Source of the DNA: Sorex araneus
Taxonomy: Eukaryota; Chordata; Mammalia; Eulipotyphla; Soricidae
Length of the DNA stretch: 64,000 nt
Assembly (NCBI RefSeq): GCF_027595985.1
Contig: NC_073302.1
Location: 12,383,811 to 12,447,810, forward strand
Reading direction: 5' to 3'
This document shows, in pieces, positions 20,787 through 57,032 of this stretch. Numbering within the stretch: position 1 is the first letter of the stretch; the number at the start of each line of letters is the position of its first letter. The notes under the pieces were generated by a model. The model was not told where the DNA came from. It saw only the letters and a list, made by a program, of their open reading frames with translations, and searched no databases. Both the position numbers and the translations under genes were made by a program.

Positions 20787-20851
20787 ATTTGCTCCTGTCC
20801 CCAACTTCTTCCCAAGTAGAAAAATATACATATTATGCTTAAGATATCCAT
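20787..20851 (-). CDS. C5: C5 exon 1 (start codon and signal peptide)
   Basis: The start codon is in a good context (gccATGg) and is followed by 21 codons, then a consensus donor (AT|GTAAGT). The peptide is MDILSIICIFFYLGRSWGQEQ minus its last residues as the mature start: a hydrophobic core followed by SWG and then QEQ. In human C5 the signal peptide likewise ends in TWG and the mature chain starts QEQ. The exon ends in phase 2 and exon 2 supplies the missing base. This start is chosen because length, cleavage motif and phase all agree with C5, and a promoter-like region lies just upstream. Confidence 0.9.
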
Positions 20852-20950
20852 GGCTGGGAAACTATTAAATTGTGCTTGTAGGGTATCTCTTTTCATGAGC
20901 TCTATTTAAAAGGTTTATTTAAATGAGTGTTCAGGTTAATAATTAATGTC
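20852..20950 (-). promoter_or_regulatory. Putative C5 promoter: HNF1 site and TATA-like box
   Basis: Directly upstream of the start codon. GGTTAATAATTAAT at 20934-20947 matches the palindromic HNF1 consensus (GGTTAATNATTAAC) at all but one defined position, 83-96 bases before the ATG. HNF1 drives liver genes, and C5 is mainly made in liver. A TATA-like ATTTAAATAA on the minus strand (20915-20924) would place transcription start about 35-45 bases before the ATG, giving a short leader. Binding and start site are inferred. Confidence 0.55.
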
Positions 20951-20999
20951 TGAGAGTTTGTTCACTTAAGTAAGAAACCCAATCATTTACAGGATAACC

Positions 21000-23220
21000 T
21001 CTTAGTGTTTATCAGCAATTTTGGAATCTGAAGCGAGTGCTGTTTGCTCATCGGTTTGTTTGTGATGAGTCTGTTTGACTATGATGAATCAAACAGTAAA
21101 GACACCCAGATAAAAGTCTCTTAGAAAATGTTTCAAAACTGGACACAGGCACAAAGTTCTTGAAGGCTGCCTTAGCTTCCACAATTTCTGGGAGTTGACT
21201 ATGAAGCGAAAGGCCAGAACCATTGCCTTTACTGGTTCCAGTGCATCGATCACACAGATGTAGGGGCTGATGGCTAGTTTCCTTATTGCTTTGTTTTTCT
21301 CATTAAGTCACCTTGATCGCTGGAGACAGCCCAGAGAAGCCTGGGAAGTCTTGTCTTCACACTATAATTTGACCTCAGTGAAAAGTTAACCTACTCCGGG
21401 AGACATACCAGTTAGGTTCCAAATCTCAAGGTGGAACAACCTTGCGCTATCATTCAACCTACTGAGCCCCCTTAACAGAGCTGTCTGAAAGAAGCACCTG
21501 AGTTGTTTGTTTGTTTGTTTATTTGTTTTTACCTTCCTTTCTGCCCTTCCTGCTTTCTACACTTCTTCCAAATCTCTCCTGAGAGACGTGTCACTTAAAC
21601 TGCTTGTAAGAGACGGTCTTAGATTTTGTCTCTTGGAGACTATTACATGTTAGAATGAATGGAGGAGATTGTCAACCAGGACCATCTGTGGCGAGTCTCT
21701 GAAGCTGCCCTGAGATAGGTGGGGTTTGAATTTGGATCCACCAGGCCTTTATCAGATCCACTTGAAAACACACCTGAAATCCCAAGGCAGTCTTCCAAAT
21801 GCTGAGGTGTAACCAGGAACTCTAGGACCAACAATAATGCATCAGTGTTCAGAACGTGGGCACAAGAGCTGAAGCTATTGCTGCCTTAGGTTTCCTTAAG
21901 TCTAAAACCAATAACATGCATAGATTTATTCTCAATAATAAATCATCTGTTTCGGATGACTAATGGTTAGATTACTATTTCAGACATTCTTCTGAACTGA
22001 AACTAATAAGCTAATATTTAATCAATGTATGAGTTTTGAGCCATGTCAAACAAAATCAAAGATTAGATAATTATGAAGCAAAAGTAGATTGTAAAGGATG
22101 ATTCAATGTAAAAGAATCTTTCGTTTGCAGCAGGTGCCATAAATCTGCCATAAATCTAGTGCAGCATATTCTCAGACCAAGAGTGTCAGGATCAGATCAC
22201 CTCTGATGAGACTGACTGGCTGAATTTTAATTTTGTGCTGATTGTCTCAATCATTGAAGGGCTCTGAAGAAGAAGGAATTACCATGTGGAGCATATGATC
22301 ACATAGGATCCAGTTTTGACCATTAGAGGACACAGATCTCTGGTCTGTACTCAATCCTATGCATAATCTCACTTTTACATCAAAAGATATCACCAAAGGA
22401 AAAAAAAATTCAGAGACCCAAAAGCTTTGAGTTAATGCATATTATTGCCAGTAATGGTATCATTTTTGGAGGCCACAAACATCCCACATTTTCCAACACT
22501 GAAATATTTATGGCTTCCATGCTGCTATATCTTTTCACAAATAGAGGAAATAATTGTTCAAGTGCTCTCATCTTTTAGCGAGAGATAACTCTCAAGCAAG
22601 GCTCACTGTGCACTGAAACAACTCCTAGTGATTCTCACATCTAGTGAGCTGAAAGGTTCCGTGTACCAGAGCTAGAAGGTTCAATGCTAGGGAATGAGGA
22701 TCTGGTGCTTTTCGGGCCTCTGTGGTGATGGGGATAACCAGAGTCACCCCAGCAGTGCTTGGGGAACATGAGGTTCACACAGTGGTTTCTTAGGCGTGTC
22801 CTGTGCTATGCCCCCTAAGGCTCACAGATCCATGTCGTGTGAGAATTTAATGTCAGGTCAGGCACATGCTCAAGTGGGATTGTTTAAGCCGACTTGTTTC
22901 AACAACACTATTTTATTCTAATACAGTCTGCTACCCTTGTACCCAAGAAGAACAATTTGATTATTATATAGTAAATTCAAAATTATTATCTGTTGCATGA
23001 CTGATTTTAAACTGGAGGAGAAGACAAAAGAGACTGAAGATCCAAGAGCAGTGTAGGAGGAGGGGGAATTACATGGGATGGGGGGTAGAAGTATTGGAGG
23101 GTGGTATCTAGCTGATCTTTAACAAGAAAGGGAGAGAGAAATAAAAAGAATAGAAAAATAAAAATGATATAGAGGAAAGGATGTGGGAAAACTCTTGGAT
23201 TTTTATCTTTGTATGAAACT
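21000..23220. other. Sequence 5' of C5, mostly unrecognised
   Basis: About 2.2 kb upstream of the promoter. A TTTG-type short repeat lies at 21505-21528 and a degraded antisense SINE may lie at 22700-22820. No open frame with motifs, and no CNTRL exon recognised. Confidence 0.5.
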
Positions 23221-25420
23221 GCCTACTTTGAGTAGTATCTGTTTAGCCCCTCTCCTACATTTTTCTATTGTGTTTTTTATATTTTTAAGTTTTACAAGTG
23301 CTTTATATACACTTGATTTTTACCCATTGTCAGATGAATAGTGAGCAAATGCGCAGGGTCAATCTGTACAGTATCTTTTAATTCTAGTCAGTGTTTCTTT
23401 TTAAATGAGATCCTTGTTAATTTTATGTCATCCTATTTGTATATTTATTTATTTTTATTTTTTACCTTGTTTTGCCTGGTCAATGACACTACATATCGTA
23501 AATGCCTCCAGATTCAATGTGTGAAGAGTCCTGCTTATGTTTTCCTGAATTCAGCTTGTGGGTTCAGGTCTGATAACAAGACATTTCATCCATTTAAATA
23601 GATTTTTGTGTATGCTGTGAGATAGGGGTCTGAGTTCATTTTCTTGCATGTGACTGACCAGTCTTTCCCTACCATTTGTTGAACAGCTTTTTTTTGCTTC
23701 ACTTCATATACCTAGCTCCTTCACCAAAGATTAGCTATCTGCAAACGTGAGTCTGTCTCTGGACTCTCAATCCTATTCCGTTGGTCTGAGAGTCTGTCTT
23801 TATTCTAGGTCCACACAGTCTTGGTTACCATAGCTTCATAATTTAAAGTCAGGATAAATACCTTTCATCTTCTTTTTCTAAAAATTTCATTGGATAAACA
23901 GAGAGTTTCATAATTTCATACTAAGCTGAGTAACATTTGCTCTGCATCCTTGAAAAATGTCATCAATATTTTAATAATGCTTGAATAGGATAGATATTTT
24001 GACAATATTAGTTTTTTAAATTCCTGAACATGATTTTTTTTTATTTTCCAGTATTAGCTTTTTTTTTTATTCGTGACTTCTAGTTTTCCATGTAGAAGTC
24101 ATTCACGTCCCTTTTAATGTTGATTCCTAGTTCCTTAAGATTTTTTTTTTTATCAATCAAGAGCTTTTATTTATTTATTTTTTTTATAATTTATTTATTT
24201 TTAATTAGAGAATCACCGTGAGGGTACAGTTACAGATTTATACACTTTTGTGCTTATACTTCCCTCATACAAAGTTCGGGAACCCATCCCTTCACCAGTG
24301 CCCATTCTCCACCACCCGTAAACCCGGCGTCCCTCCCACCCTCCCCAATCCCATCTCCCCCCCACCCCACCCTGCCACTGTGGCAGGGCATTCCCTTCTG
24401 TTCTCTCTCTCTAATTAGCTGTTGTGGTTTGCAATAAAGGTGTTGAGTGGCCGCTGTGCTCAGTCTCTAGCCCTCATTCAGCCCGCAACTCCCTTCCCCC
24501 ACATGGCCTTCAACTACAATGTAGTTGGTGATCGCTTCTCTGAGTTGCCCTTTCCCCGGAACGTGAGGCCAGCCTCGAAGCCATGGGGTCAACCTCCTGG
24601 TACTTATTTCTACGGTTCTTGGGTATTAGTCTCCCACTCTGATATTCTATATACCATAGATGAGTGCAGTCTTTCTATGTCTGTCTCTCTCTGACTCATT
24701 TCACTCAGCATGAAACTTTTCATGCCCATCCACTTAACTACAAAATTCTTGACTTCCTTTTTTCTAACAGCTGCATAGTATTCCATTGTATAGATGTACC
24801 AAAGTTTCCTCAACCAGTCATCCGTTTTGGGGCATTCGGGTTTTTTCCAGATTCTGGCTATTGTAAACAGTGCTGCGATGAACATACATGTGCAGATGTT
24901 GTTTCGATTGTACTTTTTTGATTCTCTGGGATATATTCCCAGCAGTGGTATTGCTGGGTCAAATGGGAGCTCAACCTCTAGTTTTCTGAGAATCGTCCAT
25001 ACTGTTTTCCAAAAGGGCTGAACTAGCCGGCATTCCCACCAGCAGTGTAGAAGGGTCCCTTTCTCCCCACATCCTCTCCAACAGCGGTTGCTTTTGTTCT
25101 TTTGGATGTGTGCCAGTCTCTGTGGTGTGAGGTGGTATCTCATGCTTGTTTTGATCTGCATCTCTCTGATAATTAGTGATGCAGAGCACTTTTTCATGTG
25201 CCTTTTGGCCATTCGTATTTCTTCCTTGGTAAAGTTTCTGTTCATTTCTTCGCCCCATTTTTTGATGGGGTTGGATGTTTTCTTCTTGTAGAGTTCAACC
25301 AGTGCTTTGTATACCATTGATATCAACCCCTTATCTGATGGGTATCTAGTTCCTTAAGATTTTTAAATGCTATTTGAAATAAAGTTGAATTTCTATTTCT
25401 TTTTCAAGTTACTGTTTGCT
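23220..25420 (-). mobile_element. Older antisense L1 ORF2 remnant, interrupted
   Basis: Antisense L1 ORF2 with many lesions, recognised from GTGAGATAGGGGTCTGAGTT and CCATTTGTTGAACAGC. A younger L1 interrupts it at 24145-25345, and a short remainder follows to about 25420. Confidence 0.65.
24145..25345 (-). mobile_element. Young 5'-truncated L1, antisense
   Basis: Contains an almost intact ORF2 C-terminus of 238 codons (24610-25326, minus strand). It has the L1-specific run [19 protein letters not shown], then PLLGIYP and [17 protein letters not shown]. The 3' UTR and A tail follow. The 18-base duplication CTAGTTCCTTAAGATTTT at 24127-24144 and 25346-25363 flanks it. Not a host gene. Confidence 0.93.
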
Positions 25421-25428
25421 GTTTGCAG

Positions 25429-25540
25429 GTGTCGTAATCCATATGCTAAAAACAGTGACAACAAGTCTCACGATGGAGACGTTATTGGTGCCGGCTCAAG
25501 CAAATTGATGAGCAACAGGATGACAGTGACAATTACTGTT
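25429..25540 (+). mobile_element. SINE, long type, 3' half
   Basis: Sense tail only: GTGACAACAAGTCTCACGAT, GAGACGTTATTGGTGC, GGATGACAGTGAC. Confidence 0.8.
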
Positions 25541-25577
25541 TACATATATAAATGAAATAGATGGGGGAAGGGCATAT

Positions 25578-25738
25578 TTTGGACCACACCTGGCAGTGCT
25601 CAAGGCTTATTCCTTGCTCTGCATGCAGGGATCACTCCTGGTAGGCTCAGGGATCCTCACAGATACCGGGGATCAAATCCGGGTTGGCCACTTGCAAGGC
25701 AACTAACTGCCTTACCTGCTCTACTAATGCTCCAGCCC
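25578..25738 (-). mobile_element. SOR-type SINE
   Basis: Antisense: GGACCACACCTGGCAGTGCT to CTACTAATGCTCCAGCCC, B box as GATCAAATCCGGG. Confidence 0.75.
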
Positions 25739-25989
25739 TATAAATGCAATGTATTTTTATATCTCTTTTGTAACCTAATACTTTATTTTGTACGTTTAAT
25801 TTTTCTAGGAGATTTTTAGTAGAAGCCAGGTGTGATTCACGAATGCAGAGCCAGGAGTAAGCCTTGAGCAACACCAGGTGAACCCCTGCAAAAGAGCTTT
25901 TTAGTGAAGTCTTTAGGGTCTTACTGTGTATAACCACACCACCCTCAAATAGTGACATTTTAGATTTTGGCATTTTTACTTGGAAAATC

Positions 25990-26137
25990 TCAGAATCTAC
26001 TCCTGACTCTGTGCTGAGGGATCACTCATCACTCCTTGTGGTGCTCAGGAGACCATATGGGGTATCCAAAATTTAACCTGGGGTTTGGCTACATACAAGG
26101 CTAGTGCCCTACCTCCTGTACTAATGCTCTGGCCCTC
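25990..26137 (-). mobile_element. SOR-type SINE
   Basis: Antisense, diverged: GTGGTGCTCAGGAGACCATA to ACTAATGCTCTGGCCC. A sense scrap of the same family lies at 25820-25890. Confidence 0.7.
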
Positions 26138-26139
26138 AA

Positions 26140-27490
26140 GCAACTGTTTTATTAAACTTCTTGGTATGTGTGTATTCTTCCAATACTCTTTATGTTTACC
26201 TATAATAAATTAGAAAAGCCTAAAAGATGAAAAAACTATCTTCTCCCTCAGTTTACATCTACAACAACCTATTTTGTGTAACCAGGTGACTAATTCAGAG
26301 AATTGATGGGAGCAAGGAAAAGAGTAAACAGGTTTCTCAGTCATGTGTATGTTCTAAGCACAGCGGATGCCCTTTTAAAAGTTCCTTTGCAACAGAAAGT
26401 GTCGGCAACTCTGTTTGCCTGTAGCTGAGGCATGCTGAACTTGTTCTCACTGTGACTCTCATGAAGGTCCGCAATTTTGGGGTCCACAGATGAATTTCAT
26501 TGTGAACACTGTATAAATGGGGCAGCAGGAATAATTGGGATCTTCTTCTTCACATACTCTATTGTACCATTAGATTTGACTAAAAAAGTTCATATGCAAA
26601 ATAATTATTTTGAGACAGAATTTGGCTTGAAATTAAGCATGAGGACTTCTAAATGCTGAGTTCTGTGCCACTGCACACATGGCTTGTCTAAAAATCCAAC
26701 TCTAGGGTATCTCTGCTTAGGACTACATAGACAAGAGTCTTAGAACATCACATGGGTCTCCCCAAATGACAACGGACATGGCACCTACAGAGCGAGTAGA
26801 GAATGTCAGGAAGATGAGACACTTCTCAGAGGCTATGAAAGCAACACAGAACTGCTGGCCTGGGGCTGGGTAGTTAGAGATGTTACAAAAGAGTCTGAAA
26901 GATGGGAGACTACCAGAATGGAAAGGGTGTTGGGGCTAAAATCTGGGAGGAGGAAAAGGAGGGGTTAGACTCACTAGAGAAGGAGAGGGTGGTCAGAGGA
27001 TAGAACCATCCAGAGACTTCAATAGACTCATCAATGGATGGAATTTATGGCCTAAGAGGAGCAGTCCCCCAAGGACAGGACAAAGAAAGTTCTAATCTGT
27101 AGAGGGTTTTGAGCACTTGTGGAACTATTATGGATGGCAAGTATAGATGTTTCCCAAGAAAGAAAAGGCCAAAAAGTAGGCTAGTATCATAGGTTTAGCA
27201 AAGTGAAGTCACATATGGTTGGCTATCCTGGGGTCATTCCTCAGAGCCTGGACATCAGGTCATATCATGGAGGCCTACAGAAGGAAGCAGATAGGACCTA
27301 GAGACATGATAGAGTCCCATTTCTGACAGAGAAACTGATGTATGGGGATTCCTTGTTTTTTGGTACAAAGTTTTTGTTGTAGAAATGTGGGATATAAATG
27401 GTGGCGTTGGTTACATCGCATCATGTATATATGTAATACGTCTGATATGTGTACTGAAAAGTTCAATATTATGTTATATTTATTATACTA
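26140..27490. other. Upstream region, nothing recognised
   Basis: About 1.3 kb of apparently single-copy sequence. Purine-rich stretch at 26870-27000. No exon or RNA gene seen. Confidence 0.45.
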
Positions 27491-27498
27491 CAATGTGC

Positions 27499-27504
27499 AA
27501 GTGT

Positions 27505-27543
<39 letters not shown>
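27499..27543. repeat. (GT)n microsatellite
   Basis: About 20 GT units. It produces valine/cysteine-rich spurious open frames. Confidence 0.95.
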
Positions 27544-27544
<1 letters not shown>

Positions 27545-27767
27545 TTCTGAAGTTCAGACTTGGGGTCTCAGACATGAAAGGCATGCTCTCTTCCGCCCAC
27601 CAGAATTCCATTTCAATGCACTTTTTAACCTGGAAAGAAAGAAAAAAGGGAAACAAATTGTACTATGAAATTTGCCAGATGATGCGTAAAGAAGTTAAAA
27701 AATTAGCATTTTTGATATATTATTAGGAAGTTCCAATTTTAGTGTATGTGCTGCTGAAGTGAAGGGA

Positions 27768-28012
27768 CTGGAGTGATCGGACAAGGGTAGGGTGTTTGCC
27801 TTGCACGTGGCGAACCCAGGTTCGCTTCCTTCGTCCCTCTGGGAGAGCCCGGCAAGCTACTGAGCATATCTCGCTCATACAGCAGAGCCTGGCAAGCTAC
27901 CCATGGCATATTCAATATGACAAAAAAAAGTAATAACAAGTCTCACAATGGAGACGTTACTGGTGCCCAATCAAGCAAATCGATGAATAACTGGATGACA
28001 GAGCTATTATTT
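27768..28012 (+). mobile_element. SINE, long type
   Basis: Sense: AGGGACTGGAGTGATCGGAC to AACTGGATGACAGAGCTATT. Confidence 0.85.
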
Positions 28013-28133
28013 GGAAGATGAAATGGATGTCAACTCTCACATCACATATCCTCAGAATCTTACTAACAATCTATTTGAGATGATACAGAATCACCTAGGA
28101 ACTATGCGTGTTTCCCTCAAGAAAATCAAAATT

Positions 28134-28306
28134 TCAGGAGTGGAGAGATAATGCAACAGATAGTTTCCTTTGTACAATACCAACCTGGGTTCAATTCCTG
28201 GCACCCTATTCTCTCTCACTAGTCCTGCAAGGAGTGGTTCCTTGGCACAGAGCTGGGGGTAAGCCCTGAGCATCACTGGTGTGTCTCCCCCCAAAAAAAA
28301 GTTTAA
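28134..28306 (+). mobile_element. SOR-type SINE, diverged
   Basis: Sense: GGAGTGGAGAGATAATGCAA, CCAACCTGGGTTCAATTCCT, and a CCAAAAAAAA end. Confidence 0.75.
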
Positions 28307-29199
28307 AAAGAAAAAAGATGAAAATAAAATTCTGGAGGCAATAGCTGAATGGTGATGCAGGACTGAATTCTTCCTCATCCTCTTTGTGGGTAGAAAACAA
28401 AGCAGCTTGATGTGGGCACCTCTCTTTGGTGGGTTTTTTGATTGCTGGGCAGATTCCCTCCTGTGAGAAGCTGCTGTCCAGGGTCCTTGGGTGGGACATG
28501 ATCAGAAGACCAAAGTGTTTGAGCAAGGTGGGGGATCAAATACTGCCATGTCAGAGTGAGGTCCCTCACACCAATCCCAGGCTGGTCACAGTTAGAACAT
28601 CTCTAGAGCCACAATGCCACAATATTATGTGTTAAGTATGAACTTGCTTCTCAAAATCCCTTGGATCCTGTAGAATCCCAAATTAGGTACCATTGTGACC
28701 CTGCTTGAAGTGTGACCAGAGAAAAAAGACCTGAGTTTTCCATTTCATTCTCCTTTTAGGGTCAGGTTCCTGATCCTTGAGAAACTGGTATAGTATATCC
28801 CAGGCATCCTTGACTTGGGAATGAGGCATACACTGGAAAGGCATAGGGGTCATGAGGGGCGGATCAAGGTAAGAGAAGATTGAGTTGTCACTAGGGATAG
28901 AGGAAAAGGATGGGTTAATCAGATTTAAAAGTTGGCATATGGGTAATATATAAAGCAGAGAGAAGGGCAAAGATATGAGGGAAATGCTGTTTAAATGATC
29001 CTGTCATCATGAATTCACAAGTGTTCACGAGCACTTCACATACAGCAGACACTGAGCTTGGGGTTGGGTAGCAGTGAACCAGACTGAGGCTCAAGGAACC
29101 CGTGTCTAAGGTTGAGAACAGAGCAACCCATGATGAACATTGTGAAGGGAAACTAGGTTGAGGAAGGAAAATGATTTACACTTAGAACTAGGTCTTCTT

Positions 29200-29880
29200 G
29201 TTTGTAATAGACAACCGACATAAGTGTTACTTAAATGAGATCAAAGTTTATTTTTCACATGAAAGAAATAAAAATCTGTGTTGACATGACCACAGGTCAT
29301 CAGAGATTGGAACTATTATTTTTTGTTCCTCCATGGTAGCATCAATCTTCCAATTTCACTGTTGCCTCTTAGTCAGATGAGTGCTGGAACTCCAAGTGTC
29401 ATTTTGGCTTAGGGCTGCAAAACTGAAAGATAAGAAGAGGACCCTCTCCTATGAATCAACTCTCCTTCCTAGAAGTATCATGCAATTTTGTTCCTTCAGG
29501 AGCTCATAACTTATCTTTACTCAATTTCAAGACCCAAAACAGTGGCAATATGGCAGGCTAAAATTGAGATTCTTAAAATAAGGAAGAAAGAGGTTATACT
29601 AGATTAACCAGATATTTATGACACAAAGTGTTTTCCTATGTTGCCTTTCAAATTATGAATATTGAGTATCTAATATTTAGAAATATTATCCTGACTTTAT
29701 AGGATGATAATTTTTGATACAGACCATTTTAATAAAATGTAAAACTTCTAAAGATATCATTATAAATTATATAAGTCTTCCCTTTTTGACAAAGATTCAG
29801 TGTTAGGCTTGGATCCCAGCTCCACTTCAAGCTATGTTTTTTCCCCCCACCCTTGCTTCAAGGTTTTTATTCTTGCAAAA
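29200..29880. repeat. Possible ancient interspersed repeat
   Basis: Stretch with the general look of an old mammalian repeat (TTTATTTTTCACATGAAAGA). I could not assign a family, and no exon is seen. Confidence 0.25.
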
Positions 29881-29884
29881 CATT

Positions 29885-30050
29885 ATTTTTTATATATAAA
29901 AAGTATATGTATATTGTATTTATATATTTATAATATTTATACATATATTTAATTTATAAATTAATAAACATATATTTATAAATATTAGAAATATATTTAT
30001 ATATATTTATTATATATTGATATATATATCAATATATATATACTTTAATT
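29885..30050. repeat. AT-rich low-complexity block
   Basis: About 165 bases composed almost wholly of A and T (TATATTTATAAATATT and similar). Confidence 0.85.
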
Positions 30051-30469
30051 TCTCCTTACAGAATTACAATTCTCCTCTAAGAGGAGAATACATAAAATAT
30101 CTTCTTCAGGTGAAGTTACAAAGTGATTGGTTAATAAAGTTTAGGGGAGGATAAGATAGACAAGGTGTGACAGTGTTGAAGTGTCTTGATTACTTTGTAT
30201 ATCAAAAGCATATGTGTTAGCACTATTACATTACCTAAGCCTGCAATGTTTTTTAAGAAAGAATAAACAAAACCTCTTGTTGAATAATTATTCAACACTA
30301 CTCCAACTCTATTCTTGCACTGCAAGTTTGTTGTATATATTAAAATCTAATAAATATTTCTTATTCTGATTTTAATGGAAATATACCATTTATCTCAACC
30401 TAAATCACCACTTACCTGCCCTGTTTGATATACTAGTCATTGTATTTTCAGTCTTTCCACTTTCTCCCT

Positions 30470-31130
30470 TTCCTTCACCTAAGTCTCCTTCTCTTGAAAC
30501 TCCTTTGAGAGTTTCCAAGAAAAGCATGGGGGCACTCAAGGGAATTGAGAATTCGGTGGCTGAGAGCTGCCTCCCCAGGTCGGCCCACAGCAGTGAGAGA
30601 CAGAAGAAGGACCGGGGTAACGGAGAAACAGGGTCCAGGCCCCAGGTTGCTGGTAGTCAGTTTATTTCTCTTTCCCAGCGTTGTCCAATCTCTCCCCTTA
30701 CGGCACAATCGTGGTCATAGTTTTTGGTCGTAGTCCCAGTCACCATAGTTCTCATACTCATAGGCCTCAAAGTCCTCTCCTTCATTATCTCCTTCCTAGT
30801 CTTGTCGTAGATTCATAGTTCTCTACCTTCAGTCACTGTCGTCCTTCTAGTCTTTACAGACCCTCTAGTCCTCAAAGACCTCAAAGTCCCAGAGTCCCCT
30901 TCTTTTCCCCTGAAGAGCATAGTTATATAGAAGTCATGAAGGGTGGGGGTACACATAGGTGTGATTGAACATTGCTATACCAACACGCAGAGGTAAAGCC
31001 ACTCTTTCTGGGGCAGTTCTAGGAGATTAACTCATGGGAAAAAATTTCATCTGAGGGTTCAGCACTCTAAATTACTAGGAGAACCTGCTCAAGGCAGGAT
31101 TTGATCCAGGATGTATTATTTTATCCTTGC
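30470..31130 (-). mobile_element. LTR-like element, antisense
   Basis: GC-moderate block with a reversed polyadenylation signal (GTTTATTTCT at 30659-30668) followed by short tandem motifs (CATAGTTCTC, CCTCAAAGTCC) and a TACACATAGGTG string. The organisation suggests an ERV LTR. No viral genes are present. Confidence 0.4.
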
Positions 31131-44594: not shown

Positions 44595-44668
<74 letters not shown>

Positions 44669-45877: not shown

Positions 45878-46149
45878 GAAAAGTTTGTTACTTAAAAGCA
45901 CTTTTACAAAGAAGTATATTAAAATCATTAAAATTCTTTTTTTAAAAAAAATGCACAGTAGCAAGCCATAGTGGCAGAATCTCACAAGGAGAAAACCACA
46001 CACATGAACTTGAAGACAAAATACAGGGTAGATTGATAAGGAAGTTGAAAAAGAAAACAGAAACAGAAGAATGGAGGAAAATGTGAGGTATTTGAATGAG
46101 GAAAGGCAATACATATAATCTTCAAGTTATAGGAATATCAGAAGATAAA

Positions 46150-46790: not shown

Positions 46791-47068
46791 TTCCACAAGC
46801 AAGACCCAGATATGGGGGTTCGAGGACCAAATCTCCAGGCTGCATGGCAGCAGAGGATCCAGGCAGTCCCTCCCTGGGCCCCTGCCCGCCCAGCAGACTG
46901 GCTGTTGCACCCACAATTTGCGTCAGGTGCTACTTTAGCAAAACTTTAGATACAACACATGACTATATACACAGATATCACAGAATCATTTGGTCAAGTA
47001 TATTTTCTATAATTTATAGAATAAATTATTAATAAAGTACTATCCACAATAGTATCACAATAGTATGT

Positions 47069-47139
47069 CTGCTCCAATGCACCCTGTCACTTGGATTGTC
47101 TGTATAGGTCAAAATTCAGAAACAGTAACCCTAACCATA
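47069..47139. repeat. 71-base direct repeat, copy 1 (C5 intron 17)
   Basis: Starts CTGCTCCAATGCACCCTGTC and ends CCCTAACCATA. Differs from copy 2 at 48237-48307 at three positions only. Both are direct and flank exon 17. Confidence 0.9.
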
Positions 47140-47298
47140 GCTAATATCTGTCTGTTCTGCCATTTCCAGCTGAAGTAGAGGAGCTTATACTTCATCTTTT
47201 CTTGTTAAATCAAGTTTCTTCCCAAGGCAGCACAAATTCTGTCAGGTCCCTTCTTACTGCACTTTTCATGGTGTAAGAATTTTAACATATATACATAC

Positions 47299-47496
47299 CC
47301 ATTTTTGTTCTTAGGAGGAAACTGAGATGAGTGTTCTCACCCCGTAGTTGTCTTGCCCCATCACAACAATCAGAGAAGGCTTTGACACAACTGGGGCCAA
47401 TGTCAATCCGAGCAGCTCTTGTCTCACAGCTCTCCTCTGTTTTATGGATTCCATCACGACAGCATTTCTGAATCACCATGTGTTTGTATCTGGATA
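47299..47496 (-). CDS. C5: C5 exon 17 (C5a anaphylatoxin)
   Basis: 198 bases, acceptor ATCATCTCAG, donor G|GTATGT, phase 1 at both ends. It encodes the disulfide core of C5a: YKHMVIQKCCRDG, ESCETRAARIDIGPSC, VKAFSDCC. Six cysteines fit the three conserved disulfides of C3a/C4a/C5a. The seventh, free cysteine of human C5a is absent, as I recall also for pig. Predicted C5a is 72 residues (74 in human) and ends SFLLR, where human ends MQLGR, before the convertase cut. The human N-glycosylation sequon is lost (NTH). Confidence 0.95.
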
Positions 47497-48230
47497 CTGA
47501 GATGATAATACAACTACTCTAAGACAAGTACAAATCCAAAGTTTTGGGGCAGGATTTAGAGGCTCTAGTCCAGCTTCCTTTCTGGTGCCCCTGGTACACC
47601 CCTTCTTGTACCAAAGGTTAACAGCCCCCCCCAGAAATAGCTCCTTGAGTAAGGAATTACTTCCGGCCCAGACAATTCTTCTATTTCAGAGTTATAACTT
47701 TTCTTGACATCTAAACCAAAATCTAACTCCTCTGAGTTACTCACGGAATCAACCCTCTTTTGCAGAGAGGTCCCATAATCAAGAGTTTCTTGGATATCTA
47801 AAGGCAGGCTTCGTAGTCACCTTAGTCTTACTCTCTCCAGTAAACATTATAGGTTACTATATAATGTTTTTACCCCATGAAAACCCCATGTTTTCATGGG
47901 CTAAGACTGGTTTCAAAACCTTCCAACAGTCCCTCTCCACTGGTCACTTACTTAAGAGAGGCAGTCAAACTGTAATTGAATAAAGTCTCAGTGTCTAATC
48001 ATGTAGAGACAAAGACCATTCCTTTTGATCACTCTTCCCATTTTCTTACAAACCATGTACTGGGACATTGGAGTTACCTCCTCTGTCATTTAGAGATGGG
48101 AAGCAATGTTCAGAGAGGGGATGAGATGGCCCAGGTGGACATATCTACTTCATGTAAAATAAGGGCTGGAACTAAGAGGCAGTATCATGAAGTCAAAAGG
48201 CACTAGACCACAGAATAAAAGCTCTGACAC
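47497..48230. other. C5 intron 16, first part: nothing recognised
   Basis: Between exon 17 and the direct repeat. No interspersed repeat I could name and no exon. Confidence 0.5.
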
Positions 48231-48236
48231 GTGTGA

Positions 48237-48307
48237 CTGCTCCAATGCACCCTGTCACTTGGATTGTCTGAATAGGTCAAGATTCAGAAACATTAACCCT
48301 AACCATA
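48237..48307. repeat. 71-base direct repeat, copy 2 (C5 intron 16)
   Basis: 68 of 71 bases equal to copy 1 at 47069-47139. The rest of the intron to 49025 shows nothing recognisable. Confidence 0.9.
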
Positions 48308-49024
48308 ATTAGTAGCAATCCTAACCTTAACTTCACTAGTGTAAAGTGATTATAGTTTGTTTTTAAGAAAGCCAAGTTTTAGCTTTGATTAGAAGGGATT
48401 TTAAAGGATAAAATGCATTAAGTTACTGGTTAATGAACTTGAGCAAGGGTGCTTTACTTAAGTGATCTTATTTAATTCTTTGAACTCTGTAAGACAGAAA
48501 GAAATTGTCTGCATTTGACAAAATAAACTGATGCTTAGGAATAATAAATAACTTGCCTGAGATCACATAGCTGTAAAAAGTAAGCCAGGACTCAAGCCTG
48601 ATCTCTGATTATAACATTTTTGTTCCTTAAGTGATGCTGTTTTGGCAAAGTCCTGCTATAATTCAGGGTGGGGTGGTATTGCTTAATTGACATTATCATC
48701 ATTATTAAGCCACAGTATCTGCAACTCCCCCAAAAATTAATATCATGGATAGTGCACTTGAAATTTAAGTGGTACAGAAAATACTGGTTCTTTCATACCC
48801 ATCTTTCAGATCCTCTGGATAGGACATAAATAACAATACACTGAAAAAAACTGGTTCTCGGTAAGACATAGTGATCTCCAGAGAAGGGGACTGTGTTCTC
48901 AGCCTGATCTAGTTTCACATTTGGCCAATACCATTTATTATCACTATGGTATTGGGTATATTTGTTGTACATTTGACTTCTTCGTCAAAACCCTGAATGA
49001 ATGATTTGAGGCTCTTCCTGTTCC

Positions 49025-49145
49025 TGGAGTGAGCAGATATCATTGGGCTACACTAGCACGCGACAGGGACAAATGGAGATGTTACTGGTGCCCGCTCGAG
49101 CAAATCGAAGATCAATGGGATGATAAGTGATACAAGTGATACAAT
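49025..49145 (+). mobile_element. Short SINE variant
   Basis: Sense: CATTGGGCTACACTAGCACG head joined to the GGAGATGTTACTGGTGCCCG tail and a GATACAAGTGATAC end. Confidence 0.7.
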
Positions 49146-49633
49146 TGTACATTTATCATTATCATTAATTTTTCTCTGTGCCAGATGTTTTCACATGTAA
49201 AATGGAGCAGTAGGTACCTTCATCATGTAGTTAATATAAGTATTCAAAGAGAAAATTATGAAGCTCATCGTGAGGGTTTCACAAAGTCTGTCACAGTGTA
49301 AACGTATTAATATTGTTCTCGTTAGGGGGATGGCTTTCATTCTCACCAACCTATACATTTTGATAGAACAAAACCTAAGAGATAATTTTAAATTATTCTA
49401 TTTTAACTTAAGAGAATGGACATTATGGAGAACAATTTTCTTTATGTAAGGACTTGGTAAATTTTAAGTGTGGGATTATTTACCTAGAGTGCCTGAGGCC
49501 TGTGGAAAGTAAAATCACAGTGAGCACTGATTGTTTCACCTGCTCTATGTCACTTAGTTTGAAAGAAAAAAAATGTTGCAGATGCTGGGTTATTATATCA
49601 TAACTTAAAAATCAAAATAAATCTTTTAAGTAC

Positions 49634-49696
49634 CCATTCTTTCTACTTCGTCTTTCCATTCTCTTTTTGATCTGAGAATTTTCTTAAATGACGCAC
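49634..49696 (-). CDS. C5: C5 exon 16 (RSKR furin site, C5a start)
   Basis: 63 bases, acceptor TTTTTATAG, donor G|GTACTT. It encodes GASFKKILRSKREWKDEVER plus one residue. RSKR aligns with human RPRR, the furin-type site that separates beta from alpha chain, so C5a here would start EWKDEVERM. The human cysteine two residues before K-E-I-L is replaced by phenylalanine, leaving its partner in exon 15 unpaired. Confidence 0.9.
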
Positions 49697-49861
49697 CTAT
49701 AAAAAAGGGAGAGAATATCTGTTAGAATAAATACTTCAGTCATATAAGTATAAACAAAATATTCACAGATTGGAGGTGCAAGAGTACTCAAAGTGTTGGA
49801 AGCATGTGTGCCTGTGTAGGATGTGTCTCAATACTCAGCTCTGTAGTTCACCTGGGGACAA

Positions 49862-50035
49862 CTGGACTGGAGAGATAGTACAGTATTTAGGGCACTAGCC
49901 TTTCAGGTGGTTGACCTGGGTTTGATTCCAGCACCCCATGTGGTCCCTTGATTCCTGCTAGGAGTGATCCCTAAATGCAAAGTCAGGGGTAAGCCCTGAA
50001 CATGGCAAGGTGTGGTCAAACAGAAATAAAATGAA
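49862..50035 (+). mobile_element. SOR-type SINE, diverged
   Basis: Sense: GGACTGGAGAGATAGTACAG, GACCTGGGTTTGATTCCAGC, GGGGTAAGCCCTGAACATGG. Located between exons 15 and 16. A further degraded SINE-like block follows at about 50315-50560. Confidence 0.75.
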
Positions 50036-50763
50036 AGCAATACATGAGAACAACCACATATAATCCTGGCCCACCCAAATCCACTTGGGGGCTGATGCAA
50101 GACAGACTATATGTAATAGCCCTATTTGTAATCTCCCCTGACCCTGGGTATTAGTTTTTTTCTTTATTAAAATTAAGTTTTAAAAATAGAGTTTAAAAGA
50201 TCATTTTTACTGCTACAGTTGTTTTTATTTTCAAAGAGTATGCTGTGGCTGCCATCAACTTTGGTAGGGTCATAAAAATCAATGTATTCTCTTGAAATGA
50301 CATTTGGGTTAGGGGCCATGAGATAGATTGACAGTCAGAGGAGCATGCTTCCATGCACAGGCCCCAGGTTCCATCCCGGGCAATGCATACCATACCTCCT
50401 CCTCCATCCTCTTGCAACATCCCCAACACCACCAGGTATAACCCAGAGGCTTGTGCATGACCCTGAGTTCAAGTTTGATACCTGGCAACACACCATCACC
50501 TCATTGTTTTCCCCAGCACCACCATCCATAGCCTTGGAAGCTCCAGCACTGTCTTATGTGGTCTTATGACACTCAGTTGCCACCAGCTACAGTCCTGGTG
50601 ACGTCCAGTATTACTATACCCCAGAATGAAACACTCTGTGCCAGATGGCCAAATGGTTAGGTGTCACTGGGAGTGATCTTGGGTCTTGTAAGCACTTCTT
50701 GAGAGTCTCCTCTTTCATACCCCTAAAATTAATCTTAAGATTTATTGAAAAAAAAAGAGTTAC

Positions 50764-50893
50764 CATCTTGTTGGGAGTTATCTGCATACACGTTGGTAAG
50801 GACAGTGAGTCCCGTGGAGTAGAGCACCTCAACATTATTTCTGCCACCACCTGTTCCACACTCTGGGTCACTTTTGTGTGAAGACTGAAGTAT
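50764..50893 (-). CDS. C5: C5 exon 15 (beta-chain linker)
   Basis: 130 bases, acceptor TTGAGCAG, donor G|GTAACT. It encodes SDPECGTGGGRNNVEVLY, then TGLTVLTNVYADNSQQD. The C-G-x-G-G-G-x-N-N and L-T-N-x-x-A-D-x-S-Q motifs match human C5 with no gap over 43 residues. It ends in phase 1. Confidence 0.92.
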
Positions 50894-51009
50894 CTGCTCA
50901 AGAAGAAATCAATTCCCCCAAAAAACAACAGTCAGAGAGCATTATGGAATACGTGGACTGTGAACAGTGTTAGCCCCAAGTGACTAGCATACTAAAGGTT
51001 AAAATTGAA

Positions 51010-54000
51010 TTCTGCAGTTTCCCCAAACATTTTCCCTTTCCCTGCTTTACATAAGAATATCAGTAGTGGCTCATCCCATTCAGGTATTGGCCTGTGTCAG
51101 GGCTCCTTTCCAGAGCATGATTCTAACCAGTCCCCAGGAAAGCCAGTTTTCATCCTTGGCCTGTGGAGGATGGGAATTGAGGCACATAGCGCTCACCCCA
51201 AGGGGCAACATTCGGGGTGCCCACTGCTCATCCCATTCAGGTATTGGCCCATGTCAGGGTTTCTTCCCAGGGCCATGGCCGCTAATGTGGCCATGATTTA
51301 TTCTCTCCCCTCCATATCCCACAAAAACAATAAGGTACCCTCTTAGTTGGAACTCTCACCAGGTTGGCTTAACCACCGGAAACACATTAGCCAATAACTC
51401 ATTAAGCCTACCTCAATTAATACTGCACCATAAGCAGAATAGTAACAGTGAGTGTGAAGGGCTAAGCCACATAGGTCACAATGGGAAAACAATGCAGTTC
51501 CCCACCAAGCTTACTTACCAAAGAGGCTAGCCCAGAAGACCCCAATGAAGTTCTAGATAACCTTTCTGACAAGGAATTTAGAAGGGAGCTACTGAGGATG
51601 TTTAGGGAGCTAAAAAAAACCAAGGGAAAACAATGCCAATAAAATACAAGAGGATTTGAAGGTAGAAATGCAGAAAATGCAAACAAAATTACAAACAGAA
51701 ATTTCAGACCTGAAAAATTTGGTAGGCGAATTAAAAACCTCAGTGGAAGTCCTCAGCAGCAGAGTAACAGCTGCTGAGGACAGAATGAGTTGAAAGATGA
51801 AGTCTAGAGACTCTCTAGAAAAGAACAGAAAATGGAAAAGAGGCTGAAAATCCAGGAACAGATGGCAAGAGAAGATTGTGATGAAGCCAAGAGGAGTAAT
51901 ATAAGAATTATTGGAGTCTCAGAGGGACAGGAAGAAAACCCTGATGAAGAAGAAACTGTCAAAGACATCATTGCTACGTTGTTCCCAGAGCTGAAGAAAA
52001 CATGTGACCAAATTCAGGAGGCCAGAAGGGTACCAGCCAGAAGAAATCCAAATAAAAATACCCCAAGATACATCCTGATCAAAATTACCAAAACCTTATA
52101 TAGAGACAAAATCCAGAAAGCAGCAAGATCAAAGAAAGAAATTGCCTATAAAGGAGCATCCTTAAGATTCACAGCCGACATGTCTGATGAAACCCTCACA
52201 GCCCCCAAACAGTGGTGAGATATAGTGAAAAAACTCAATGACATAAACATCTCACCAAAACTTACCAGGCTAGACTCTCATTCATAACAGAAGGAACAAC
52301 ACACAGTTTCACAGATAAACAACAGCTCAGGAACTTCATAGACTCAAAACCATGGTTACAAGAACGAGGGGAACGGGCTACTTTATGACAAGACAGGTCC
52401 CTCAAATACACCAAATTTCAGCAGAAAAATGGGACAAAACCCCATAACAATAATCTCTCTCAACATCAATGCCAATTTAAAGACACAGAGTGGCAGGATA
52501 GATTAGAAAATTGAACCCAACATTCTACTGCCTGCAAAAACCACATCTCAATAGTCAGAGCAAACACAGACTCAAAGTCAAAGTCTGGAAAACAATCTTA
52601 CAGGTGAACAACTCCCATAAAAAAGCTGGGGTAGCCATCCTAGTATCAGACTACATTGACTTCAGACTGAAGAAGGTCACAAGAGACAGTGAAGGTTATT
52701 TCTTATTGATACATGGATCTGTACAACAGGAAGAACTAACAATACTAAATACATATGCACCTGATGAGGGACTGGCAAAGTACTTAAAACAACTACTCAT
52801 AGACTTGAAGAAAGACATCAATAGCAACACAATACTAGTGGGAGACTTCAACACCGCTTTATCACCTCTTGATAGATCAACCAGACTCAAGCTTATCAAG
52901 GACATACTTCATCTCAGGGAAGAAATGAAAAAAAGGGACTTAGTAGACATATACAGGACACTTCATCCTCAAAAAGCTGAATGCACATTTTTCTAAAGTG
53001 TGCATGGAACATTCTCCAAGATAGACCAATGCTGAGCCACAAAACATACCTCTATAAAATTAAAAAGATAGAAATTGTATCAACGATCTTCTTAGACCAC
53101 AATGCATTGAAATTAGAAATAAATCACACATACAAACAGAAAATAAAGCAAACACCTGGAAATTAAACAGCTCATTATTGGGCAAGGAGTGGCTTAGAAA
53201 GGAAATCAAAGAGGAAATCAAAAGATTCCTGGAAATGAATGAAAATGAGGACAAGAGGGGCTGGAGCGATAGCACAGCGGGTAGGGTGTTTGCCTTGCAC
53301 GCGGCCAACCCGGATTCTATTCCCAACATCCCATATGGCCCAGTGAGCACCGCCAGGAGTAATTCCTGAGTGAAAGCCAGGAGTAACCCCATGCATCACC
53401 AGGTGTGACCCAAAAAGCAAAAAAAAAAAAAAAAAAAAGAGGACACGAGTTACCAAAACTTATGGGACACAGCAAAAGCTGTGTTAAGAGGAAAGTTTAT
53501 AGCTTTACAAGCATTCCTGAGGAAGGAGGAGTGAGCCCACATAAGTAACCTAACTTCACAGCTTAAAAGTTTGGAGAATAACTAACAAAAGGAGCCCAAT
53601 CCAAACTGGAGGAAGAAAATAATAAAACTCAGAGCAGAAATTATCGAGATGGAAACCCAAAAAACCTTTCAAAACATCAATGAAACCAAGAGCTGGTTCT
53701 TTGAGAAAATAAACAAGATTGAAAAAACTCTAGCAAAACTCACAAAAAAAGGGGAGAGAGAAAACCCTAATAAACCGAATCAGAAATGAAAAGGGGGACA
53801 TTACAACAGAAACTGCAGAAATTCAAAGGATCCTCAGAGATTACTTTGAGAATCTTTATGCCACGAAAAACAAAAACCTCGAGGAAATGGATAAATTTCT
53901 AGACTCCTATAGCCTCCCAAAGCTGAACCAAGAAGACCTGGAATACCTGAACAGATCTATTACCATCAAGGAAATTGAAAGAGTAATAAAAATTATCCCC

Positions 54001-54425
54001 AAGCACAAAAGACCTGACCCAGATGGATTCACTAGTGAATTCTTCCAAACCTTTAAAGAGGACTTACTCCCAATCCTCTTTAAGCTTTTCCAGGAAATTG
54101 AAGTGTCAAAAACACTTCCAAACATTTTCTATGAAGCAAATATCACTCTGATACCAAAAGCAGACAAAGATACCACAAAGAAAGAGAATTACAGACTGAC
54201 ATCCCTGATGAACACAGATGCAAAGATCCTCAACAAAATATTAGCAAATAGAATCCAACGACTCTTCAAAAAGATCATACACCATGACCGATTAGGATTT
54301 ATCCTAGTGATGCAAGGATGGTTTAGCATTTGCAGGTCATCAATATCATCATCATATCAATAACAGAAATAATAAAAACCACACGATGATATCAATAGTT
54401 GCAGAGAAGGCATTTGACAAGATCC
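51010..54425 (+). mobile_element. L1 with 5' UTR, ORF1 and 5' half of ORF2, 3' end missing
   Basis: Sense, in C5 intron 14. The 5' UTR has a tandem unit (CTCATCCCATTCAGGTATTGG at 51070 and 51227). ORF1 covers about 51480-52220, with a coiled-coil-like stretch and IRIIGVSEGQEENPDEE in the 128-codon open part at 51832. ORF2 starts about 52440. The endonuclease region includes AGVAILVSDYIDF and TILNTYAP, and the RT region includes [25 protein letters not shown] interrupts it at 53257. It stops abruptly at about 54425 with no tail. Confidence 0.85.
53257..53438 (+). mobile_element. SOR-type SINE inside L1 ORF2
   Basis: Sense, near consensus with long A tail. GAGGACAAGAG before and GAGGACACGAG after are the duplicated L1 target. 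Confidence 0.92.
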
Positions 54426-54439
54426 AGCTCCCGTTTTAG

Positions 54440-54830
54440 GGGGGGGGGTTGTTACTTAGTTTCATATTTTTTGGCCACAGTCAATCAGGGGCTACTCACA
54501 ACATGGTGTTTGGGAAACATTCCTTGTGGTACTCTGAGTACATGGACACCAAAGGATAGAATCCATCTCTCTGCATACAAAACATGCATTCCAGCATCTA
54601 TTCTCCCTGACCTACATTTTAAATATCTTTATTACTGATAGCAATCTCTAGGGATTGTTGGGAATATTTAGTAAGATTACAAAAGCTGTGTTGGGAGAAA
54701 GCTAGAAGGGCAGGAACTCATGCTTTGCATCTTGGGGACCTGGATACAATCTCCCGACTCTGCATGGTCTCCCAAGCACCACAGAGAGTGATCCTGGAAC
54801 ACCAACAGGTAAAAAGACACAAAAATATTA
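54440..54830. mobile_element. Two degraded SINE remnants
   Basis: Antisense remnant at about 54450-54610 and sense remnant at about 54690-54800 (ACCTGGATACAATCTCCCGA). They mark the point where the L1 is cut off. Confidence 0.5.
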
Positions 54831-55029
54831 CAGATACAAAGACCTTGTAATGATACTAAACTAATAAAAAATGTTTAGTAACTGTTACTTGTTTTGCTCT
54901 CAGTAAATGGAGCTGAGAAGATAAATGTGGCTATAAATGCATGTTTCCCTTTATTCTGCCATGGAGAGAAACACGGAGTTCAGCTGGTCCAAAGTCATAC
55001 CAAGTGTTGGTAATCGGCATTTACTTAAC

Positions 55030-55176
55030 TCTTTCTATGGGATTTTTGTCTCTTTCTTCATCTTGATAGGTAGCCATGTTCACTGCTGATAATGCTATCG
55101 AGGCTTCTGATTGAGTTTCTATAGTAAGAGAAATTTTGCGAGGAGTGTGTGTATCTCTACTTGGAGACCAATTAAT
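55030..55176 (-). CDS. C5: C5 exon 14 (MG6)
   Basis: 147 bases, 49 codons, separated from exon 13 by an intron of only 102 bases with a clear pyrimidine tract. It encodes INWSPSRDTHTPRKISLTI, then SIALSAVNMATYQ and NPIER. The human counterpart carries the family motif A-V-D-S-A-V-Y; here it reads AVNMATY. This is the most diverged exon, and its donor (GTTAAG) is poor, but length and phase fit exactly. Confidence 0.78.
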
Positions 55177-55278
55177 CTGAAATGAGTTGAGAAAGAAAGA
55201 ATCTTCTTGTTAGATTAAACAGTGTCAGTGTCAGATTAAAGAGGAGGAATTCAGGCTGGCAAGGGTATTTGAGGCTAC

Positions 55279-55488
55279 CCGGAGCTGATTGCCACACTTT
55301 TCTTGAATCTTTAGGCAGACTGAATCAGACACTAATTCTGTCATCTGATCTTCTGTGACAAAGTAATAGACGAGGAGACAGCCTGTAGGAGCCATGTGCT
55401 GAGTTAGGGGAAGTTTCAAAATTTGGGAAGATAAACCTGGGAGCTTCTTCTCAGAACCGAAGTGGACAATTTTGCCCTTAGATGAAAT
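55279..55488 (-). CDS. C5: C5 exon 13 (MG5 end, MG6 start)
   Basis: 210 bases, 70 codons, acceptor TTATTTTCAG, phase 0 at both ends. It encodes SSKGKIVHFGSEKK, then LLVYYFVTEDQMTELVSDS and QEKCGNQLR. The cysteine in E-K-C-G-N-Q-L corresponds to the human residue that links the beta and alpha chains. Two additional cysteines are present (PTGCLL and DSVCLK, where human has R and W). The donor GTAGCC is weak. Confidence 0.9.
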
Positions 55489-56828
55489 CTGAAAATAAGC
55501 AACAATAAAAAAACATCAGAGTGGGTTAAAAACTAAGATTTTAAATATTTACATATAAATATTTAAATATATATTTAAAATGTTTAAATATATTTAAATA
55601 TTTATATGTAAATATAGAATGGACACTTACAGATTATGACACTTATTGATGGGCACAAACCTAATTACAGAAATAATTTCATAGAGATATTTCTCTGCAT
55701 TAAGCCACATATGAATTTATATATGTGATCATCATAACATTATTTCTTTATCTAAACCTTTTAGTAACATAGAAATTGAGGATCACAGACACAAATGATT
55801 TATTAACTCAAAAGTTGCTTCTCTCAGAATCAATAAACTTCTTGCTTACTTCAAAAAATGTTACTTTTTGCAAATAATATATTATCAGTCACTGAAAGGA
55901 AGAGATCTTGGAATTGTTTGTATTCAAAGTTTTCTTTCTGAACAGGAATTTATCTAGGAAATGACCTCTGATCATGTTAACTCAGAGTCCAGGCCTTCGT
56001 TAAGTAGAATATCATGCTATTGTCATTGCTAGCTTGTACTTCAATTTTTTTCTATTTTTCATGTTTTTCTGCCTCTATTATTGTTATGATGATCTAGTCC
56101 AGAGCTATATACACCTGGTTATGATGATTGCCAGGGTATCAACCCTAGTTTCAGTGCTCTCACCTTTTCGGATGTGATATACCAGCTTTAATACACTATG
56201 TTTTATTGTCAGAGATCCCAAATAACAGTTCCACCAGGATGGCCATTGGTATATGGAGTTGTATTTGCCATGGAAACCTCGAACTCATACCTGCAGCCTA
56301 GGTACTACACCATGACTCAAAAAAGCCAGCACTAGTTTGCATTTTAGATAGCAACGAACAATGCCTGGAAATACTACATTCTTTTTTGAGTACACAGTTA
56401 ATATATTCCCTTTGTAAATAAGGCATGTTCTTAAAGAATGTTATGGTCCCTATGAGTCTAATCCCTGGTCATGCTCTTCATTCGCCAGGACCAATCTGGG
56501 GACTGAATGAAGGCTCTGATCAGACGGCTGGCTTCACAACACAGATTATAAATCTAAGAGTTAGGAAAAATAAAACAAAATCTCAAAACTACCCCTGAAT
56601 CCCTGTGACCAAGGCAGATTATTGACTCTCTATACTCTACAGCACTGTTGTATGGAGTTCAGGGAGGAGTTTTGAGGCTCTGTTAGGCTGTTACGAAGAT
56701 GATTGTGAATGTGCTATTTAGACTGTAAACGGTTGTGTAGGTGCATCCACACATTCATTAAATTCATTAGGTGAGTAATACATTACTGGGTTATTTACAC
56801 AAAGAACAGTTGCAAGAAGTGACCTTAC
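55489..56828. other. C5 intron 12, nothing recognised
   Basis: Intron of 1340 bases between exons 12 and 13, AT-rich near 55540-55620. No repeat family assigned. Confidence 0.5.
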
Positions 56829-57032
56829 CAGGTAATTGTAGTGTGTAATTCTGTCAACATAAGGACTTTTAGGAGTGACAGTTATGCTGAGATATTCTCC
56901 CAGAGGCAAACTCTTGTAACTGTCAGGCCAACTGAGGAAAAGGAAACTTTGGCTGTGTGTTGAGTAAGCCACTGCTTGATAGTCATTGCTGGCCTGATAT
57001 TCCTCTGGAAGTTTTGGATCATCCGTTCTGAC
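56829..57032 (-). CDS. C5: C5 exon 12 (MG5)
   Basis: 204 bases, 68 codons, acceptor TTCTTTAG, donor CTG|GTAAGG, phase 0 at both ends. It starts [11 protein letters not shown] and ends [17 protein letters not shown]. With about two thirds of residues matching human C5, it is the best conserved exon here. It is the exon expected directly after exon 11, yet it lies about 36 kb upstream of exon 1. Confidence 0.93.

What the first reader, a model, noticed from the sequence alone, without database searches (positions are those of the whole stretch)
20851..57032. C5 exons 12-19 lie upstream of C5 exon 1 on the same strand
Seen: eleven exons (1-11) from 20851 to 255 and eight exons (12-19) from 57032 to 34384, all minus strand, with no exon present twice and none missing between 1 and 19. 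In a normal C5 gene exon 12 follows exon 11. No run of N marks a join. Inference: either a tandem C5 duplication whose upstream copy has lost exons 20 onward, or an assembly in which the 21-64 kb segment belongs to the left of position 1. The exact complementarity of the two exon sets argues for misordering; an uninterrupted window without gaps argues for a real rearrangement.
Basis: partly seen in the sequence, partly recalled or inferred. Interest (0 to 1): 0.9.

Follow-up and report, generated by a model that had tools for sequence, protein, structure and literature searches.

The report
Tandem short complement-C5-like genes in shrew
The back half of one short copy of the immune gene C5 lies in front of the first half of another copy in what looks like a shrew gene cluster, so the odd exon order is most likely a real head-to-tail row of genes and not a mistake in the genome assembly.

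Summary
In detail: exons 1-11 (20851-255) and 12-19 (57032-34384) lie on the minus strand in that order, with open frames and AG/GT borders. The best explanation is neither a broken C5 nor a misordered assembly. Both blocks belong to a short C5 paralogue family, annotated 'complement C5-like' (743-841 aa in Sorex), which ends soon after the C5a-like domain. The blocks come from different paralogues: exons 1-11 are 87% identical to S. araneus P0002 but 58% to S. fumeus P0007; exons 12-20 are 85% identical to P0007 but 67% to P0002. Trees and AU tests reject a common origin. So the window holds the 3' end of one short gene, a 12.3-kb spacer, and the 5' end of another. The outer halves of both copies lie outside the window and could not be read. 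A new example of a known kind, moderately interesting as a fast-evolving complement gene cluster.

The parts
33161..57032 (-). Upstream C5-like copy, 3' part: exons 12-20 including the stop codon (exons 12 57032-56829, 13 55488-55279, 14 55176-55030, 15 50893-50764, 16 49696-49634, 17 47496-47299, 18 38312-38243, 19 34457-34384, 20 33243-33161)
   Evidence: Splice sites and open frame; 331/388 identical (85%) to Sorex fumeus P0007 and 211/317 (67%) to S. araneus P0002; tree support 100/97 with P0007
49634..49696 (-). Exon 16: carries RSKR, the counterpart of the RPRR chain-processing site of C5 (role of the site recalled)
47299..47496 (-). Exon 17: C5a-like domain with all six cysteines, and an Arg 18 residues after the last CC
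   Evidence: Pfam ANATO 9.1e-10; pattern check
33161..33243 (-).
   Evidence: tblastn with P0007 residues 801-820, 80% identity, E 2e-6; sequence read
33132..33155 (-). Just after the stop: matches the last eight residues of the longer C-termini of P0006, P0008 and P0011 in another frame, so this copy's C-terminal end is shifted relative to those three
20852..33160 (-). 12,309-base spacer between the stop codon of the upstream copy and the ATG of the downstream copy
   Evidence: a weak human-C5 hit at 26881-26825 (E 5.1) was not matched by any of nine C5-like queries
255..20851 (-). Downstream C5-like copy, 5' part: exons 1-11 (1 20851-20787, 2 20025-19833, 3 19144-18979, 4 14641-14571, 5 11064-10973, 6 9538-9456, 7 8787-8700, 8 5616-5517, 9 3354-3237, 10 1273-1161, 11 422-255)
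   Evidence: Splice sites and open frame; 364/419 identical (87%) to S. araneus P0002 and 244/419 (58%) to S. fumeus P0007; tree support 100/99 with P0002-P0004
57033..64000 (-). Presumed part of intron 11 of the upstream copy; its exons 1-11 are expected to the right of the window
   Evidence: No convincing C5-like exon found here; inference

Best explanation
The window lies inside a head-to-tail array of short C5 paralogues ('complement C5-like') in a Sorex shrew. Reading the minus strand, it starts in intron 11 of one copy, runs through exons 12-20 and the stop codon of that copy, crosses a 12.3-kb spacer, and enters exons 1-11 of another copy, a different paralogue. Shown: the anatomy, open frames, family membership, and different paralogue identity of the two halves. 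Inferred: that the missing halves of both copies lie just outside the window, and that the genes are expressed. Proposed function (inference): a secreted protein with the C5 beta-chain part and a C5a-like domain, but without the later regions that C5 needs to start the membrane attack complex, so it would act by releasing a C5a-like peptide or by competing with C5, not as a lytic component.
For: Short C5-like proteins exist in several placental mammals, with several different copies in S. araneus and S. fumeus (sequences). Block 1 is 87% identical to P0002 and 58% to P0007; block 2 is 85% identical to P0007 and 67% to P0002; the S. araneus/S. fumeus orthologue yardstick is 88.7% for P0011/P0008. 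Trees put the halves in different clades (100/99 and 100/97) and four AU tests reject the swapped placements (p 2e-4 to 6e-72). The upstream copy ends in the terminal exon that its relatives use. All 20 exons are open with AG/GT borders.
Against: The other halves of both copies are outside the window and could not be read; the window's own genome did not complete. A chimeric single gene combined with a misassembly cannot be excluded with the window alone. The last residues of the upstream copy are shifted out of the frame that P0006, P0008 and P0011 use, with the stop a little earlier; the rest is intact. The clades for the AU tests were named after the trees were seen, and the 26 comparison rows were selected from the listed hits. 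The search that found the short proteins admits only lengths of 0.55-1.75 times the query, so full-length members of the C5-like clade would not have shown there. Same contig is inferred from equal contig lengths in the listings, and on the 452.7-Mb S. araneus contig this does not prove adjacency. Function is not tested.
Confidence: 0.93

Rival explanations
1. Assembly misordering: one C5(-like) gene whose 3' block was placed upstream of its 5' block.
For: Each exon occurs once and the sets are complementary; the reading phase at an exon 11/12 junction fits.
Against: The two halves belong to different paralogues. No exon is missing for a short C5-like gene that ends at exon 20. There are no N runs. 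Several paralogues are annotated in each of two Sorex species.
Confidence: 0.03
2. A full-length C5 duplicated in tandem, with the upstream copy having lost its later exons as a local event.
For: The upstream copy stops at exon 20 while C5 has further exons; full-length C5 exists in two Sorex species.
Against: The eight Sorex C5-like proteins (743-841 aa) and those of rhinoceros, cat, alpaca, colugo, hare, squirrel and mouse lemur (809-842 aa) are short (found under a length filter) and form one side of a 100/100 split from ten C5 proteins. The shortness is therefore most likely old and shared.
Confidence: 0.02
3. Decaying pseudogene fragments.
For: The sequence is only 49-53% (block 1) and 42-48% (block 2) identical to the ten C5 proteins compared, and the C-terminal end is frame-shifted relative to three paralogues.
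Against: Introns are present, 20 of 20 exons are open, splice borders are AG/GT, and RSKR and six cysteines are kept.
Confidence: 0.02

Closest known systems
'Complement C5-like' of Sorex fumeus (P0007) and Sorex araneus (P0002, P0003, P0004, P0011)
   Same: Same exon content in the part seen and same domain order; block 1 is 85-87% identical to P0002-P0004 and block 2 is 85% identical to P0007
   Different: No listed protein is identical to either window copy
Complement C5 (full length, e.g. P0155 S. araneus, human C5)
   Same: N-terminal half is homologous, exon order 1-20 collinear, chain-processing site and C5a-like domain present
   Different: The shrew C5 proteins have 1,671-1,682 aa and the PF07678, PF07677 and PF01759 domains that the eight short Sorex proteins lack in the listing; opposite side of a 100/100 split
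'Expressed sequence AI182371' of mice (P0062, Mus spicilegus)
   Same: Short C5 relative with MG1, MG2 and ANATO domains; mouse AI182371 is reported in a section on secreted proteins (PMC9301574, passages seen)
   Different: Much shorter (356 aa) than the shrew proteins (743-841 aa); not placed in the trees here

Membership tests
Short complement C5-like paralogues | Closer to C5 than to C3/C4 | tested here: met
   C5 1.5e-193, C3 1.3e-48, C4 3.7e-35 (joined query with some exons missing)
Short complement C5-like paralogues | Falls with the C5-like proteins and not among full-length C5 proteins | tested here: met
   Both halves on the C5-like side of a 100/100 split, 17 rows against 10
Short complement C5-like paralogues | Reading frame ends soon after the C5a-like domain | tested here: met
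   Stop in exon 20, upstream copy; the end of the downstream copy lies outside the window
Short complement C5-like paralogues | R-X-K/R-R site and six-cysteine C5a-like domain | tested here: met
   Upstream copy; of 16 C5-like proteins in that call, 15 have the site before the domain and 16 the six cysteines
Short complement C5-like paralogues | Expressed and secreted | not testable with these tools
   Needs RNA or plasma proteomics of a Sorex shrew
Full-length complement C5 | Exons after exon 20 with the later C5 domains | tested here: not met
   No convincing such exon between the stop at 33161 and the next ATG at 20851
Misassembled single gene | Both blocks derive from one paralogue | tested here: not met

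The most novel reading that the evidence does not exclude
Sorex shrews have expanded a truncated, non-lytic C5 paralogue into a fast-evolving array whose members carry diversified C5a-like domains, some with and some without the C-terminal arginine. The cluster would serve as a set of C5 decoys or alternative C5a-like signals, shaped by conflict with pathogens or blood-feeding parasites that target C5.
Probability: 0.2. Interest if true: 0.65.

Novelty: new member of a known kind. Interest (0 to 1): 0.35.

Why it matters
It removes a suspected assembly error and points to an apparently little-described group: short C5 paralogues in placental mammals, multiplied in shrews. In the exon 1-11 tree the shrew copies lie 0.33-0.62 changes per column from the node at which rhinoceros and cat C5-like proteins lie 0.065 and 0.11 away (branch lengths, summed by hand), so they could show how complement genes diversify. 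Work on shrew C5 should also be aware that 'C5' hits may be short paralogues.

Tried and rejected
The weak human-C5 hit at 26881-26825 (E 5.1), which looked like a degenerate later exon of the upstream copy, was dropped: the terminal exon with a stop was found upstream of it at 33243, and none of the nine C5-like queries matched there at E up to 1.

A local loss of exons was considered and dropped, because the relatives are themselves short.

Six paper searches gave no description of this family that I could see; most papers were seen as listings only. 'AI182371': 10 papers, of which I opened passages of one, PMC9301574. 'Sorex araneus'/'genome'/'complement C5'/'gene duplication', at least 3 of 4 terms: 94 papers, 20 listed. 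'complement C5-like': 6 papers, one opened. 'C5-like' with 'shrew': 0 papers. 'C5 gene'/'paralog'/'complement C5'/'tandem duplication'/'mammals', at least 4 of 5 terms: 3 papers, one opened. 'hemolytic complement' or 'AI182371': 560 papers, 10 listed, none of those 10 relevant by listing. The shrew comparative genomics paper PMC11544316 has no occurrence of 'complement' in its main text (passages seen; supplements not seen); it reports expanded families linked to the immune system without naming C5 in the passages shown. PMC7768046 (passages seen) reports that C5 is linked to CNTRL in most genomes analysed; CNTRL was not looked for in the window. PMC11428827 (passage seen) lists a 188-kDa 'complement C5-like' in pangolin, which is full-length size and so probably not this family.

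The first PDB and Pfam queries lacked several exons and held a short out-of-frame stretch before exon 17; the query ended at exon 15 and lacked one junction residue. The exon set used for searches is that. My first notebook entry holds provisional exon borders and numbering that one search replaces. The trees used 26 proteins chosen from those listed; the other listed proteins, mouse-type short forms among them, were left out. P0017 (squirrel) is named 'complement C5 isoform X2' and P0014 'complement C3-like' in the database; I counted both as C5-like (P0014 only, not in the trees). P0071 (Callospermophilus, 1198 aa, 'LOW QUALITY') is a longer C5-like record that I did not examine.

Full report
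The question was why C5 exons 12-19 lie upstream of C5 exon 1 on the same strand.

Observation. The minus strand carries exons 1-11 at 20851-255 and exons 12-19 at 57032-34384. Borders were chosen from homology and splice signals; 19 of 19 acceptors are AG, 19 of 19 donors GT, and each block reads open in frame. The encoded protein is C5-type: PDB phmmer gives C5 1.5e-193, C3 1.3e-48, C4 3.7e-35, and Pfam finds MG1, MG4, an MG2 match below its cut-off, the A2M bait-region domain and ANATO. tblastn with human C5 recovers exons 1-7 and 9-15 at E below 0.01 and exons 8 and 19 weakly; nine C5-like queries together recover all 20 exons, none convincingly twice. There are no Ns. One exon was missed: exon 20, 83 nt at 33243-33161, ending in TGA.

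What it is. A protein search with joined exons returned 69 proteins, headed by 'complement C5-like' from Sorex araneus (P0002, P0003, P0004, and P0011 further down) and Sorex fumeus (P0005-P0008), 743-841 aa, with similar short proteins in other placental mammals such as rhinoceros, cat, alpaca, colugo, hare, squirrel and mouse lemur. That search admits only lengths of 0.55-1.75 times the 648-aa query, so its lengths are filtered. In an exon 1-11 tree and an exon 12-20 tree of 27 rows each (the window plus 26 chosen proteins), 17 C5-like rows and 10 C5 rows fall on opposite sides of a 100/100 split (midpoint root). The shortness is thus most likely an old family trait.

Two different copies. 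Window block 1 (exons 1-11) is identical at 364/419 positions (87%) to P0002, 354/415 to P0003, 356/416 to P0004, 328/415 (79%) to P0005, 250/415 (60%) to P0011 and 244/419 (58%) to P0007. Block 2 (exons 12-20) is identical at 331/388 (85%) to P0007, 252/390 (65%) to P0011, 211/317 (67%) to P0002, 234/378 (62%) to P0003 and 227/379 (60%) to P0004. The yardstick for orthologues between the two Sorex species is 88.7% for P0011/P0008 in both blocks, and 91% and 86% for C5. In the trees, block 1 joins P0002-P0004 (100/99) and block 2 joins P0007 (100/97). Forcing block 1 with P0007 (with or without the Suncus protein) or block 2 with P0002-P0004 (with or without P0005) is rejected (p 2.1e-4, 3.6e-7, 5.9e-72 and 1.8e-65; groups named after the trees were seen). 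The two blocks are therefore not halves of one ordinary gene; only a chimeric gene plus a misassembly would rescue that reading.

Against a fully clean picture. Just after the stop of the upstream copy, 33155-33132 matches the last eight residues of the longer C-termini of P0006, P0008 and P0011 in another frame. The end of this copy has thus shifted frame relative to those three; P0007, its closest relative, also has an end of its own.

Why the exons look complementary. Exons 1-11 span 20.6 kb, exons 12-20 span 23.9 kb, the spacer from stop to ATG is 12.3 kb, and 7.0 kb lie between exon 12 and the window edge. One unit is thus 63.7 kb or more, if the two copies are alike in size. A 64-kb cut from a head-to-tail array with such a unit shows each exon about once in circularly permuted order. 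No misassembly is needed.

Species. The window is most likely from a Sorex close to S. araneus: block 1 sits with the three S. araneus copies. No listed protein is identical to either window copy, so the species is not proved, and the window's own genome could not be searched.

How it may work. The upstream copy keeps RSKR (the counterpart of the RPRR or RPKR site of the three shrew C5 proteins), six cysteines in the C5a-like domain, and an arginine 18 residues after the last CC; in those three C5 proteins the arginine of LGR lies 19 residues after it. Among 16 other C5-like proteins in that call, 16 have the six cysteines, 15 the R-X-K/R-R site, and, counted by eye, 10 an arginine at positions 17-19; P0002, P0004, P0005, P0006, P0009 and P0015 lack it. 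The eight short Sorex proteins lack the PF07678, PF07677 and PF01759 domains listed for shrew C5, so they should not start the membrane attack complex (inference from recalled C5 biology). Mouse AI182371, a shorter relative by name and domains (P0062), is reported in a section on secreted proteins in PMC9301574 (passages seen). A decoy or C5a-like role is a guess.

Rate. From the node that rhinoceros and cat C5-like proteins share with the shrews in the exon 1-11 tree, those two lie 0.065 and 0.11 changes per column away and the shrew C5-like rows 0.33-0.62 (summed by hand). Errors in gene models could add to this.

Verdict. Observation confirmed; tandem duplication well supported; local loss of exons and misordering not supported. 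The result is a new member of a known, apparently little-described kind.

Noticed in passing
   Followed up: yes
33132-33155 (-): Out-of-frame match to the C-termini of P0006, P0008 and P0011 just behind the stop of the upstream copy: a small frame shift at the end of this gene
   Followed up: partly
6715-7008 (-) and 38927-39094 (-): 7SK-like (141.9 bits) and U2-like (50.5 bits) sequences inside introns, probably retropseudogenes
   Followed up: no
52166-54056 and 61535-63449; 24613-25353 (-): Two similar copies of a long interspersed repeat, and a 247-aa open frame that looks like the end of an L1 ORF2 (label recalled)
   Followed up: no
e.g. 16404-16521, 53255-53372, 62769-62886: Many copies of a tRNA-like SINE that I recall as typical of Sorex shrews (label recalled)
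   Followed up: no
about 1274-1350 (-): The S. araneus gene model P0004 includes some 20-27 residues that align with intron sequence just before exon 10 here, so that model may include an intron piece
   Followed up: partly
47063-47146 and 48231-48314: An 84-base direct repeat, 90% identical, 1.2 kb apart near the C5a-like exon
   Followed up: no
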